Of a stretch of DNA of 55,376 bases, positions 50,957-55,376 are shown in pieces (position 1 is the stretch's first letter; each line of letters opens with the position of its first letter). The position numbers were made by a program, and so were the translations under genes. A model generated the notes under the pieces. That model was not told the origin of the DNA. It was given only the letters and a program-made list of their open reading frames with translations, and made no database searches. Origin of the DNA: Clostridia bacterium UC5.1-2E3 (GTDB taxonomy: Bacteria; Bacillota; Clostridia; Lachnospirales; Lachnospiraceae); the NCBI GenBank assembly GCA_001304875.1, contig BBZO01000024.1:1-55376 (forward strand), written 5' to 3'.

Positions 50957-51199
50957 ATGAACTGTTATCCGAATAATAATTGTCGTTGGGGAAATGGATG
51001 TAACCCGGGTTCGAGATGTGGCTGGTGCCCGCCGTATCCGCCGACGCCTCCCTGCCCGCCTCCGGGAATCGGCCCGACCGGCCCGCAGGGGCCTCAGGGT
51101 CCGCAGGGCCCGGCAGGCCCACAGGGTCCTGTAGGCCCGGTAGGTCCCCAGGGCGTTCAGGGCCCCGACTGGCCCCACCGGCCCCACAGGGCCGACCGG
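50957..51199 (+). pseudogene. Collagen-like spore-surface (BclA-type) gene, 5' part, interrupted
   Basis: Start of a collagen-like protein split by the element that follows. A Cys/Asn/Pro-rich head (MNCYPNNNCRWGNGC, CGWCPPYPPTPPCPPPG) leads into Gly-X-Y repeats (GPTGPQGPQGPQGPAG). ATG 50957 has AAAGG nine bases upstream; the in-frame ATG 50939 is an alternative. One extra C near 51168 diverts the frame to a stop at 51208; corrected, the repeats run GPTGPTGPT to the junction core CCGACCGG (51192-51199). The remainder lies at 54868 onward. It may be functional after excision rather than dead. Confidence 0.8.
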
Positions 51200-51235
51200 G
51201 GCGTTTAGTCAAGGAAATGAAAGTTTTACACGGTC

Positions 51236-52878
51236 TCACGCAGGGCGCAGCCCGTCGGCGAAGCGGAACACGATGCGGATGCGGCCTTTCTCGTGTATCT
51301 CAATATGGTCCACCAGCTCGATCAGAAGGTCTCTCGTCAGACGGTCGATGTTCTGAAGCCGGCGGAACGAGGCCAGAAAAGGATGCTCCGCGTCCGCACC
51401 GCCCTCCGGCCGTTCCTGTTCTGAGCGGAGCGTTTCCAGAAGCCGTTTCAGCTCATGGGACTGACGGTCATAGTCCTCCTTCATGTGCCGGTAGTCGGAA
51501 TGGGAAATCTCCCCGTCCTTCCAGTCCTGGTAGATGGCCTGTTTGTATCGGGTGATTCTGGCAAGCTCCCGTTCTGTTTGTCCGGCGGCGTCCGCCGGTT
51601 TTCCGGGGCGGCTCTTTGCCAGGGGAGCCCGGTCGATCTGTTCGATGATCTTTGCGCAATCCACTGTCAGATAGATCTGCTGTCGTATGGCGAAGAGGAC
51701 GGCGGTTTCCAGGCGGTCATGCCGGATCGTGTGCTTTGTGCAGGCCGCTTTCGACTGGTTCTTGTAGGTGCGGCAGTAGTAGTACACCACATTTCCCACC
51801 CGGCTGCGGGTCATGGCCCTGCCGCAGTCCGCACATTTCAGAAAACCGCTGAACAGATACAGCCTGTTCTGCCCGGGGCCCGTGCGGGTGTTCCGCTTCA
51901 GGAGCCGCTGGGCCTTTTCAAAGGTGCCCCGGTCAATGATGGCCTCGTGCGTATGCTCTACAATATACCATTCATCCTCGGGGACGGTCTCCTGGATGTG
52001 CACCTTGTAGCTTTTCATGCGGTAGCGCCCCTGCACCATATCCCCGCAGTACATGCGGTTTTTCAGTATGGAAGTCACGGACATCGCGCACCACAGGGAC
52101 GGCCTGGCGGGATCGACGCGGGGGTTCTGGTATTTCAGCCCCAGGCGCCTGCGCTTGTAGGCGGAGGGACTTAAAATCCCGCGGCTGTTCAGATCGCGGA
52201 CGATGGCATTTTTGCTCATGCCGTCCAGAAACATGCGGAAAATATCGCGGACCACGGCGGCGGCTTCGCCGTCGATCACGAGAGCGTTCTTGTCGCAGGG
52301 GTCTTTGAGATAGCCGTACGCGGCGAAGGAGCCGATGTGCTCGCCGTTCTGGCGCTTCATATCGAACACCTGGCGCACCTTCTCGGAGGTCTCCGCGCAG
52401 TGGTTTTCATTGAGCACGCCCTGGATGGGGACAGCGATGCTCCTCATGCCCTGCGGCTCCCGGTAGCTGTCCAGCGGCTGATGGGACAGCGAGATAAAAC
52501 GGACATTGTGCCGGGGAAACCAGTCGTCCAGATAGTAGCCTGGTCGCTGTAGTTGCGGAAGGAGCGCGCCAGGTCCTTGACGATCACACAGTTTACGCGC
52601 CCGCGCCGGATATCTGAGAGCATCCGCTGAAAGCCGCCTCGCCCGTCGTCGGTTGTGCCGGAAATGCCGTCGTCCACATACTCGTCAACGATCCTGTACT
52701 CGTCGCCGTCACGCAGCCCGGCAATATGGGCTTCGATGATTTTTCTCTGGTTTGCGACGCTCTCCGACTCGTCGGGACAGCAGGCGTCCTCCCTGGAGAG
52801 CCGGATATAGACGGCGATATTCCATACCCTTCGCTTGGGCAAGGCAGCTTCAGCGTCCGCCCGGCGTTTCTGTGCCAT
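51236..52878 (-). CDS. Large serine recombinase
   Basis: Site-specific integrase/excisionase of the large serine family. The catalytic domain starts WNIAVYIRLSREDACCPDES with nucleophile Ser about residue 28, then DEYVDDGISGTTDDGRGGF and VNCVIVKDLARSFRN; the recombinase domain follows (GEHIGSFAAYGYLKDP), then the zinc beta-ribbon (KCADCGRAMTRS, YYCRTYKNQSKAACTKH) and a coiled coil (ERELARITRYKQAI; DRQSHELKRLLETL). About 548 residues after correcting one base lost near 52543. ATG 52878 follows AAAGGAGG. Its stop lies 37 bases from the left junction, as is usual for such elements. Confidence 0.93.
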
Positions 52879-53143
52879 GACAGCCTCCTTTTTTTCGCAG
52901 GAAAAGCCGCAGAGGACATCCTGCAGGGGCAGGGCGCCCTCTGTGAAATCCAGCTTCACGCCCAGATCGTCCACGCGGAAGCAATAGGGATTGCCTGCCG
53001 CCTGCAGGATGTACCGGGGGCGGAGCTCTGGGGGAATGGCCGGGGTCAAGGAAAATCCCGCCCGCATCCGTCAGATCCTCCCCGCGTATCGTCTGAATGT
53101 CAGCCTCTGCCATCGCCGCGAGATCATATGGCTGATTGTCCAT
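52850..53143 (-). CDS. DUF6870-like small protein
   Basis: A protein of about 98 residues that begins MDNQPYDLAAMAEADIQTIR after AAAGGAGG and contains PELRPRYILQAAGNPYCFRV, the NPYC word I associate with DUF6870 proteins found beside serine recombinases on mobile elements. A frame break lies near 53052, and an A-run error near 52890 probably hides its stop, since as read it fuses with the recombinase; the corrected end is about 52850, overlapping the recombinase start. It could act as a directionality factor or be cargo; no function is known. Confidence 0.6.
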   Translation of the reverse strand: MDNQPYDLAAMAEADIQTIRGEDLTDAGGIFLDPGHSPRAPPPVHPAGGRQSLLLPRGRSGREAGFHRGRPAPAGCPLRLFLRKKGGCHGTETPGGR

Positions 53144-53205
53144 AAAACATTCGCCTCCTTTTAAGCATGTGTATGCGGGCAGGCGCATGTCCTATGAGCA
53201 CGGCA

Positions 53206-53243
53206 CAAAAATGCGCCTGTCCGGTTTCCACCGCACAGGCGCA
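53206..53243 (-). terminator. Intrinsic terminator inside the element
   Basis: On the minus strand TGCGCCTGT pairs with ACAGGCGCA, extended by CGG/CCG, followed by TTTTTG. It separates the upstream small-protein transcript from the DUF6870-recombinase pair. Confidence 0.8.
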
Positions 53244-53267
53244 GAAAAGGGGAATTTCCCTGTCAGA

Positions 53268-53939: not shown

Positions 53940-54070
53940 AATGTTCTCCTCCTTAATATTTGTAATTTGAAAGTAAATCCATCGGATGCTGACAGATTTG
54001 TATGTAATCACCTCCCGTCGCTGCCAGCAAATAAAGTCAAATTATTAAATTTGTTTTTATTTTCAGCAAA

Positions 54071-54117
54071 GAAAAATCCGCCTGAATACAGTATTGTGAC
54101 ACAGTATCCGGACGGAT
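54071..54117 (-). terminator. Intrinsic terminator after the TetR gene
   Basis: On the minus strand ATCCGTC pairs with GGCGGAT and GGATAC with GTATTC (one mismatch between them), followed by TTTTTC, just after the TetR stop. Confidence 0.7.
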
Positions 54118-54134
54118 CTGCTTCATCCTGTTAT

Positions 54135-54754
54135 TTACGGTGCGGAGGCCTCCTTCAGTGCTTCCAGGGCATCCACAATCGCACGGATCTGAAAGTCAAT
54201 GGTTTCATCCGCGGCTTCGGGAACGAGCAGAGGGAGAGTATCGGGGAGCGCCCGGCGCATGACCATCATGGACAGACTTAAGTTTGTAAAAGCCCGATCT
54301 TATTTTCGTCTGCCTTTATCCCGAAGGTTTCTAAAATCTTTCCGAACAGCCAGAGCTGCCTCTGGCGGAACTCCCGGTATTTTTCTTCTGACAGGCGCTT
54401 GAAAATAAGCTGCTGTTCCTCAATCGTCAAAACGGCAATGCCATTTCTCTCCCCGTAGCAGCAGGAATAGAGGAACTGCGTTACAGCGCCGCGCCAGCTC
54501 AGAGAGGGATCGGCCATCAGCGTGCGGACGTACTCTATGATCTTAGGCTGCTGCAAATACAGCGTTTCAATCACCAGGTCTTCCTTTGTTGGAAAAAAGG
54601 AGTAGAAGAAGGTTCGCGAAATTCCCACCTTTTTATATATCTGTTCTACGGTTGTGTGCTGCACGCCCTGTTTTGCCATCAGATCAAGCGCGGTCGTAAT
54701 GAGCGCTGTCCGGATACGCTCCCGGTCTTCTTCGGAATAAGCTACCTTTGGCAT
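54135..54754 (-). CDS. TetR family transcriptional regulator
   Basis: Helix-turn-helix repressor, about 206 residues after correction. The DNA-binding domain reads RIRTALITTALDLMAKQGVQ then TTVEQIYKKVGISRTFFYSF and FPTKEDLVIETLYLQ. One G is missing near 54290, so the frame stops early (ENKIGLLQT); the correct end continues GAFTNLSLSMMVMRRALPDT to EALKEASAP at 54135. ATG 54754 is preferred over the longer upstream reading. It lies next to the right junction, transcribed inward, and may control the element's own genes. Confidence 0.88.
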
Positions 54755-54867
54755 CCCATCACCTCTCAAAAAATAAAAACAGTTTTTTGTTTTTGACCTT
54801 ATTCTAGCATGGATGATGGAAGAATACAAGTTTTATTGTCCTGAACGGATTTCCTTTTTGCATCGCT

Positions 54868-55376
54868 CCGACCGGCCCGACGGGTCCGCAGGGCCCCCAG
54901 GGTGTTCAGGGCCCGCAGGGTCCCCCAGGGGCCGACGGGCGCAACGGGAGCGACGGGAGCCACCGGCGCGACCGGAGCTCCTGGCCCCGGCTTAAGCGAT
55001 GCCACCACGTTCGTTCCGGGAGCGTTTTACCTGGAGGGCGACCTGGTATTTTACAACGGCGCACTGTATCGTGCGGCGGTGAATAACCCGAGAGGAATCC
55101 CCGGAGGCTCTGCCGACTTCACCCTGGTATCCGTAGCCGGCCCGACGGGAGCGACCGGAGTGACGGGAGCGACGGGAGCCACGGGAGCGACTGGGGCTAC
55201 TGGAGCGGCAGGAGCGACGGGAGCAACCGGAGCCACCGGAGCTGCTGGTGCCGCGGGAGCGACTGGTGCAACGGGAGCGACTGGAGCTGCTGGTGCCGCG
55301 GGAGCGACTGGTGCAACGGGAGCGACTGGCCCGACTGGTCCGACCGGTCCGACTGGCCCGACGGGAGCCACCGGAG
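54868..55376 (+). pseudogene. Collagen-like gene, 3' part, interrupted (runs off the right edge)
   Basis: Continuation of the split gene. From the core CCGACCGG the frame reads PTGPTGPQGPQGVQG, then (after removing one extra C near 54924) GPTGATGATG repeats, a non-collagen insert of about 45 residues (FVPGAFYLEGDLVFYNGALY, then AAVNNPRGIPGGSADF), and more Gly-Ala-Thr repeats to the window end. No start codon with a ribosome site precedes it, and an in-frame TGA lies upstream at about 54813, so alone it cannot be translated. Gly-Ala-Thr repeats are typical sites of O-glycosylation in BclA proteins. Confidence 0.82.

What the first reader, a model, noticed from the sequence alone, without database searches (positions are those of the whole stretch)
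50957..55376. Collagen-like spore gene split by a compact serine-recombinase element: candidate sporulation intervening element
A BclA-type collagen gene is cut in its Gly-X-Y repeats by a 3.7-kb element with its own large serine recombinase. The 5' half has the start and head; the 3' half has no start. Known parallels are skin in sigK, SPbeta in spsM and similar elements in spore genes, which are excised in the mother cell so the gene is rebuilt without harming the germ line. A collagen-like surface gene as target, and an element this small, would be new to my knowledge. Developmental timing is inference; a simple parasitic insertion is the alternative.
Basis: partly seen in the sequence, partly recalled or inferred. 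Interest (0 to 1): 0.93.

Follow-up and report, generated by a model that had tools for sequence, protein, structure and literature searches.

The report
Mobile elements that split collagen genes
A gene for a collagen-like surface protein is split here by a small DNA element that carries its own recombinase; close relatives of that recombinase sit mostly in collagen-like genes of other bacteria, and a conserved sequence in front of the recombinase resembles a sporulation promoter, so the element likely cuts itself out during spore building and lets the gene be rebuilt.

Summary
A collagen-like gene (start 50957) is cut in its Gly-X-Y repeats by a 3,662-bp element (51203-54864) with a large serine recombinase; the 3' half runs off the contig. 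Recombinase, DUF6870 partner, TetR gene, both collagen halves and a neighbouring gene are frame-broken; spoIVA of the same draft genome is too, so consensus errors are likely. The element belongs to a family. In the two recombinase clades concerned, 28 of 34 and 8 of 9 loci abut Gly-X-Y DNA; the neighbouring clade shows 0 of 38. In 14 of 14 relatives with both junctions readable, the halves keep frame and Gly-X-Y register. CATAGGACA-N12-CATA or a close variant lies upstream of the DUF6870-recombinase operon in 31 of 32 and 9 of 9 loci; the strict form is absent from 36 of 36 neighbouring-clade loci. It resembles a sigma-E/SpoIIID promoter. Thirteen of 23 readable gene halves next to these elements carry a sigma-K-like promoter, against 3% in shuffles. 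I read it as a mobile element likely excised in the mother cell. Excision and timing are untested; evidence for ordinary mobility (horizontal transfer, relaxase, cargo, renewed recombinases) is also strong.

The parts
49845..50928 (+). glycosyltransferase-like gene just upstream of the collagen gene, in two overlapping frames (49845-50606, 50389-50928); name by reading only
   Evidence: ORFs; no family search made
50957..51202 (+). 5' half of the collagen-like gene: start codon, Cys-rich head, Gly-X-Y repeats; loses frame at a C run near 51165
51203..51217 (.). end arm of the element on the recombinase 3' side (inverted TTTCCT-type arm)
   Evidence: found by comparison with relatives
51239..52884 (-). 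large serine recombinase; two frames, break between about 52513 and 52540
   Evidence: Recombinase, Zn_ribbon_recom, DUF4368 on the C-terminal piece; tblastn with L006
52888..53143 (-). DUF6870 gene, candidate recombination directionality factor; two frames
   Evidence: tblastn with the L006 gene, 51-59% identity; Pfam DUF6870 on the L006 and L041 genes
53167..53198 (-). conserved promoter-like block CTCATAGGACATGCGCCTGCCCGCATACACAT; resembles sigma-E -35/-10 with a SpoIIID-like box (one mismatch to the recalled consensus)
53454..53939 (-). 161-aa gene without a Pfam or NCBIfam match; 91% identical to a gene in the L007 element
54141..54754 (-). TetR-type regulator, frame break near 54290; 83-86% identical to that of the L007 element
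54850..54864 (.). end arm of the element on the cargo side (TTTCCTTTTTGCATC)
54865..55376 (+). 3' half of the collagen-like gene, no start; loses frame at a C run near 54925; runs off the contig

Best explanation
A 3.7-kb element with its own large serine recombinase has split a collagen-like gene inside its Gly-X-Y repeats, and because its recombinase operon carries a conserved promoter-like block of predicted sigma-E/SpoIIID type, the element is likely excised in the mother cell during sporulation, which would rejoin the gene in frame. Shown by sequence: the split, the inverted end arms, the link of the recombinase clades with collagen-like genes, the kept frame and register at the junctions of relatives, and the conserved block. 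Inferred: the recombinase recognises Gly-X-Y-coding DNA and inserts there; DUF6870 acts as directionality factor; sigma-E and SpoIIID switch the operon on in the mother cell; the gene is rebuilt before a sigma-K-type promoter would use it, while the forespore keeps the element. The element is at the same time mobile: relatives have spread between genera and carry varied cargo.
For: Gly-X-Y DNA abuts the recombinase in 28 of 34 and 8 of 9 loci of two clades, 0 of 38 of the neighbouring clade, 1.6% of 14,868 control windows. Same phase relation of the two halves, keeping frame and Gly-X-Y register, in 14 of 14 relatives with both junctions readable; the window fits it in its local frames. Nine 3' halves are open for 149-613 codons to a stop. 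Uninterrupted orthologues of one split gene in two genomes. Promoter-like block in 31 of 32 and 9 of 9 loci in loose form; strict form 23 of 32, 8 of 9, 0 of 36 in the neighbouring clade. spoIVA upstream regions of the same kind of hosts show ATA-N15..17-CATA in 7 of 12 readable cases. AC-N16/17-CATANNNT upstream of 13 of 23 readable gene halves, 3.0% in shuffles. spoIVA present in 19 of 19 host genomes searched; own genome has spoIVA pieces and a SpoIIID match just under its cut-off. Parallel in C. difficile skin (PMC5025042, passages).
Against: No excision, circle or timing was observed. The window's own collagen gene and its upstream neighbour lack a sigma-K-like match. The window's recombinase, DUF6870 and TetR genes are frame-broken. 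The crossover core is unsettled: only one base agrees at both junctions of all 15 copies. Recombinase dS 0.13 against 0.017-0.042 for the gene halves in R. cellobioparum, so insertions were renewed or replaced, not simply inherited. CACAGGACA without the CATA box occurs in 8 of 38 neighbouring-clade loci, and the box resembles an end arm (AGGAAA), so it may be a recombinase site. In some members the -35 ATA is not kept. A TATAAT-type string in 18 of 42 clade loci suggests expression in growth as well. Five of 34 clade loci are not in a collagen gene.
Confidence: 0.57

Rival explanations
1. A mobile element that merely uses Gly-X-Y-coding DNA as a frequent and tolerated landing site; excision is rare and unrelated to development, and the conserved block is an ordinary promoter or a recombinase autoregulation site.
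For: 7.65 kb shared at 97% by L023, L026 and L027 in three genera with different collagen flanks; relaxase in L024; variable cargo; recombinase more diverged than the gene halves in R. cellobioparum; TATAAT-type string before many recombinases; block resembles the end arms and is partly kept in 8 of 38 neighbouring-clade loci.
Against: Does not predict a CATA box at fixed spacing that is confined to the collagen clades, nor sigma-K-like promoters on the targets, though the latter could simply reflect what collagen genes of spore formers are.
Confidence: 0.35
2. In this window the insertion is dead: recombinase and partner have decayed and the collagen gene is a pseudogene.
For: Frame breaks in recombinase, DUF6870, TetR and both collagen halves; the two junctions of the window share only part of the expected core.
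Against: Breaks also hit spoIVA and the upstream gene; four of five break regions printed lie at runs of four or more G or C; outside the breaks the recombinase aligns over residues 2-557.
Confidence: 0.06
3. A switch for surface variation: the recombinase inverts or swaps collagen segments.
For: Repeat-rich surface gene; in L037/L025 a second element appears to lie in the same gene region.
Against: The halves read in one direction in one register in 14 of 14, which fits deletion of the insert rather than inversion. Silent cassettes were not searched for.
Confidence: 0.02

Closest known systems
skin of Clostridioides difficile (sigK; recombinase CD1231, directionality factor CD1234; PMC5025042, passages read)
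   Same: Large serine recombinase in an element that splits a mother-cell gene; small acidic partner (72 aa, pI 5.5 there; DUF6870 87-95 aa, pI 4.8-6.5 in six relatives) with sigma-E and SpoIIID control shown there and predicted here
   Different: Target is collagen-like genes, many of them, not sigK; non-phage and small; excision unproven here; sequence relation of the recombinases not tested
gin of Bacillus cereus ATCC10987 (gerE; PMC5595907, outline and passages read)
   Same: Non-phage intervening element with serine recombinase in a mother-cell gene
   Different: 28.6 kb with three recombinases, one target gene; excision proven there
yin of Clostridium botulinum (yabG; PMC10747680, passages read) and SPbeta in spsM (PMC4191935, search listing only)
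   Same: Element in a sporulation gene, excised
   Different: Phage or prophage-like; single target gene
TnpX/TndX-type elements (Tn4451, Tn5397; recalled, no call)
   Same: Large serine recombinase; DUF4368-type C-terminal domain found here
   Different: No collagen specificity known to me; not compared by any search

Membership tests
Sporulation gene-intervening element | Splits a gene used in sporulation | tested here: inconclusive
   Collagen-like gene; sigma-K-like promoters in 13 of 23 relatives, none on the window's gene; BclA_C domain above cut-off in one 3' half (L030) and weakly in two others
Sporulation gene-intervening element | Halves rejoin to one reading frame | tested here: met
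   14 of 14 relatives by phase; window in local frames; uninterrupted orthologues of a relative's gene
Sporulation gene-intervening element | Encodes its own site-specific recombinase | tested here: met
   (frame-broken in the window, open in relatives)
Sporulation gene-intervening element | Recombinase or directionality factor under mother-cell control | tested here: inconclusive
   Promoter-like block conserved; expression not measured
Sporulation gene-intervening element | Excision seen in sporulating cells | not testable with these tools
   needs DNA from sporulating cells
Integrative mobilizable element | Relaxase or other mobilization gene | tested here: inconclusive
   Relaxase in relative L024; none seen among the window element's ORFs
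Integrative mobilizable element | Horizontal spread | tested here: met
   L023, L026, L027 share 7.65 kb at 97% in three genera; relatives, not the window's copy
Prophage | Phage structural or replication genes | tested here: inconclusive
   The 3.7 kb hold recombinase, DUF6870, TetR and one unknown gene; viral contigs gave 9 relatives, eight at 51-53% and one partial at 61%; PHROGs not searched

The most novel reading that the evidence does not exclude
A widespread class of portable, developmentally timed elements makes its home in spore-surface collagen genes of Clostridia and Paenibacillus: its recombinase reads Gly-X-Y-coding DNA as target and it carries its own mother-cell promoter, so it can land in almost any such gene and still be removed before the gene is needed, passing intact through the spore. 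Collagen genes would then be routinely split in the germ line and rebuilt in the dying mother cell.
Probability: 0.5. Interest if true: 0.9.

Novelty: new variant of a known kind. Interest (0 to 1): 0.8.

Why it matters
The sporulation intervening elements in the papers I saw are each tied to one gene (sigK, spsM, gerE, yabG, spoVFB). A recombinase lineage tied to a whole class of repeat-protein genes, with a conserved promoter-like block that travels with it, would show how such elements arise: a target that tolerates insertion, and timing carried by the element itself. It names relatives with intact genes in which this can be tested, proposes a role for DUF6870 (directionality factor), and warns that some collagen-like 'pseudogenes' of spore formers may be whole genes while a spore is made. 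A serine recombinase that accepts Gly-X-Y-coding DNA could also be of technical use.

Tried and rejected
Core of recombination: I looked for a core shared by both junctions. CCGACCGG, seen first in the window, did not hold across relatives; GA, GG, CG and GC were each considered; none fits all 15 copies. Left open.

Selection on the start-less 3' half: L033 against L130 gave dN/dS 0.09 for the 3' tail, but on 9 differences, and the higher recombinase dS speaks against one inherited insertion, so I do not use this as support.

Uninterrupted copy of the window's own gene: not found. A DNA search of 98 genomes gave partial matches only, in 8 of them. The end of another contig of the same genome (C25) holds a collagen 3' end that runs off that contig and might be the continuation; not proven.

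Genome-wide frequency of the block: TAGGACA-N12-CATA was found in 58 of 96 genomes, about one match per genome, not above the reversed control. So the exact string is no general regulon box; this neither supports nor excludes SpoIIID.

Viral and phage collections: in viral contigs eight relatives at 51-53% and one partial at 61%; in phage records 450 matches, all under 60%. Plasmids: 390 records with a match, one at 67% with the same promoter block and no Gly-X-Y run seen beside the recombinase.

Left ends of clade-B elements: the left edge of similarity between relatives fell on a palindrome, not on collagen, so those ends are not mapped; L030 and L054 are the clade-B copies with both ends.

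The sigma-K count was given 26 loci and read 23. L004, L018 and L058 may not be true collagen starts; L018 is one of the 13 hits. L033 and L056 are orthologues. Clade-B loci other than L030 and L054 were not given. Tree labels were set by me; L021 was labelled 'other' there though its short flank is collagen. spoIVA count, 7 of 12: of 20 loci, 7 could not be parsed and one had 3 nt upstream.

The SpoIIID consensus of B. subtilis (WWRRACARNY) and the sigma-E and sigma-K consensus letters in my patterns are recalled; a paper search for the SpoIIID string found nothing. [quoted passage not shown] PMC5025042 (passages) gives KRTAACARK for C. difficile SpoIIID, which our block fits only in part.
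Full report
What is there. The window is a complete contig (C24) of a draft genome of 3.46 Mb, 86.7% complete and 5.8% contaminated. A collagen-like gene starts at 50957, just after a gene that reads like a glycosyltransferase. Its Gly-X-Y repeats stop at 51202; 3,662 bp follow; Gly-X-Y repeats resume at 54865 and run off the contig at 55376. The inserted stretch holds, on the minus strand, a large serine recombinase, a DUF6870 gene, a 161-aa gene without a Pfam or NCBIfam match, and a TetR regulator. 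Its ends are inverted TTTCCT-type arms.

Frame breaks. Six genes or gene halves lose frame: the upstream gene (by reading), both collagen halves, recombinase, DUF6870 and TetR. Of five break regions printed, four lie at runs of four or more G or C; the recombinase one does not. spoIVA of the same draft genome is split in two frames. I take the breaks as probable consensus errors; that is inference, and decay is not excluded.

A family with one taste. A scan of the species-genome collection returned 80 loci, the best of 214 that encode a relative of the recombinase's C-terminal 403 residues. A tree of 81 rows (root drawn at the midpoint) gives a 34-row clade A with the window, a 9-row clade B, and a 38-row clade next to B. 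At least four consecutive Gly-X-Y triplets lie within 200 nt beyond the recombinase in 28 of 34, 8 of 9 and 0 of 38; the rate in 14,868 control windows of these loci is 1.6%. By reading, L018 and L034, which missed that rule, also lie in collagen genes. L003, L011, L014, L017 and L058 do not abut one. Record titles name Lachnospiraceae, Oscillospiraceae, Ruminiclostridium, Tissierella, Paenibacillus and others. spoIVA is present in 19 of 19 host genomes searched; a twentieth was not held. The window's genome also has a SpoIIID match of 108.6 bits, just under the 111.5 cut-off.

Junctions. Both ends could be read in 15 copies of 1.8 to 9.0 kb. In 14 of 14 relatives the 5' half ends two bases after a Gly-position codon and the 3' half begins with a Gly-position codon, so frame and register are kept. 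That codon is not always Gly: in L030, L037 and L054 the 5' side, in L006, L007 and L035 the 3' side has another residue. The window fits the same relation in the local frames; my script failed on it because of the frame breaks. Nine 3' halves are open for 149-613 codons to a stop, in L037 and L054 they stop after 37 and 14 codons, and in L008, L032 and L056 they reach the edge of the locus. In L037 another end-arm-like string follows, similar to one in L192, and L025 lies on the same contig: probably a second element in the same gene. In register, the first G of the Gly-position codon is the only base common to both junctions of all 15 copies; the next base agrees in 8. The crossover core is not settled.

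Uninterrupted relatives. The gene split in both R. cellobioparum genomes (L033, L056) exists as one ORF in two other genomes: L141 (501 aa; head 84%, tail 91%) and L142 (head 82%, tail 93% as far as the locus reaches).

Mobility. L023, L026 and L027 share 7.65 kb at 97% in three genera (Faecalispora, Galacturonibacter, Tissierella), with different collagen flanks. Pfam finds TetR, GGDEF, AraC, MatE and Relaxase domains in tested cargo proteins; further transporters and regulators are named by reading only. In R. cellobioparum the recombinase has dS 0.13, the collagen halves 0.017 and 0.042: insertions were renewed or exchanged at one gene.

The promoter-like block. Upstream of the DUF6870-recombinase operon lies TTTCCTCATAGGACA, usually twelve further bases, and CATA, often as GCATATATTG. 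A loose form is present in 30 of 34 clade-A loci; L019 shows one more variant; L029 and L045 lack usable upstream sequence; L003 has none: 31 of 32. Clade B has it in 9 of 9. Strict WWGGACA-N11/12-CATA: 23 of 32, 8 of 9, and 0 of 36 in the neighbouring clade; shuffle rates 0, 0.6% and 0. ATA-N15..17-CATA alone: 23 of 32, 9 of 9 and 2 of 36; shuffles 8.9%, 7.2% and 2.1%. The neighbouring clade keeps CACAGGACA without the CATA in 8 of 38. In the window the block lies at 53167-53198. TAGGACAANC fits the B. subtilis SpoIIID consensus as I recall it; the window's TAGGACATGC has one mismatch. TCATAGG, 15 bases, CATANNNT fits a sigma-E promoter as recalled; PMC3789822 (passages) gives ATA as the sigma-E -35. 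spoIVA genes of the window's genome and of hosts show ATA-N15..17-CATA in 7 of 12 readable upstream regions, with -10 boxes such as CATATATTG and CATACACTG. Against it: in members with CACAGG or CATGGG the ATA is lost while GACA and CATA stay, and the box resembles an end arm.

The targets. AC-N16/17-CATANNNT, the sigma-K type, occurs within 300 nt upstream of 13 of 23 readable 5' halves, against 3.0% in dinucleotide shuffles and 0 to 3 of 23 for four altered strings. The window's own gene and its upstream neighbour have none. In C. difficile bclA1-3 depend on sigma-K (PMC3789822, passages).

Reading. A mobile element lands in Gly-X-Y-coding DNA. It silences a gene that is likely needed only late in the mother cell. 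Its recombinase and DUF6870, a candidate directionality factor, are predicted to be switched on by sigma-E and SpoIIID, earlier in the same cell. Excision would rebuild the gene in time; the forespore would keep the element. In C. difficile skin the recombinase is constitutive and a 72-aa factor of pI 5.5 under sigma-E and SpoIIID confines excision to the mother cell (PMC5025042, passages). B. subtilis spoIVCA is activated by SpoIIID (PMC517825, passages). DUF6870 proteins of six relatives have 87-95 aa and pI 4.8-6.5. A TATAAT-type string occurs in 18 of 42 collagen-clade loci and 19 of 38 others, anywhere in the locus, window not tested; before the recombinase it would allow expression in growth and hence spread. 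Every step about our family in this paragraph is inference from sequence.

What is known. gin is a non-phage element of 28.6 kb in gerE (PMC5595907, outline and passages); yin lies in yabG (PMC10747680, passages). A 2026 survey of C. difficile bclA genes has no occurrence of 'recombinase' (PMC13188886, passages). Eight paper searches on collagen-like genes with serine recombinases or intervening elements, on the elements themselves, and on DUF6870 listed no paper that by title or abstract describes such a family (listings seen); the library holds open-licence papers only.

Verdict. Observation confirmed. Interpretation partly supported: the collagen-tied element family is well supported; programmed excision is my favoured reading at 0.57 and is untested.

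Noticed in passing
G000:C2:215626-216335: spoIVA of the window's genome is split in two frames, a sign of consensus errors in this draft.
   Followed up: yes
G000:C25, end at 53061 (L128): A collagen 3' end runs off this contig end and might be the continuation of the window's gene.
   Followed up: partly
L037 and L025 (NZ_QICS01000005.1, Lachnotalea glycerini): Two family recombinases on one contig; about 12 codons beyond the first element's end an end-arm-like string follows, so two elements may sit in one collagen gene.
   Followed up: partly
L018 8-10 kb end; L030 near 4829-4863: Further end-arm-like strings close to the junction suggest tandem or nested insertions.
   Followed up: no
L023, L026, L027 near 1660; L011 near 1228; L012 near 1165: Similarity between elements ends at a palindrome of the type ACTTCGGGYCAACTTGTCCCGAAGT, which recurs between cargo genes; possible module boundary.
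   Followed up: no
L192 (plasmid record CP141730.1): A family recombinase with the promoter block lies on a 72.6-kb circular 'plasmid' that also carries rpsI and rplM; no Gly-X-Y run seen beside it.
   Followed up: partly
L038-L082 (neighbouring recombinase clade): Same TTTCCT arms but flanks such as ATTCATATG or CCCATA instead of collagen: a related recombinase group with another target.
   Followed up: no
L142 and L036 (both in genome G102): One genome holds an uninterrupted orthologue of the L033 gene and a split relative with the same head domain.
   Followed up: partly
window 48804-49730: Patatin-like ORF (by reading) upstream of the glycosyltransferase-like gene.
   Followed up: no
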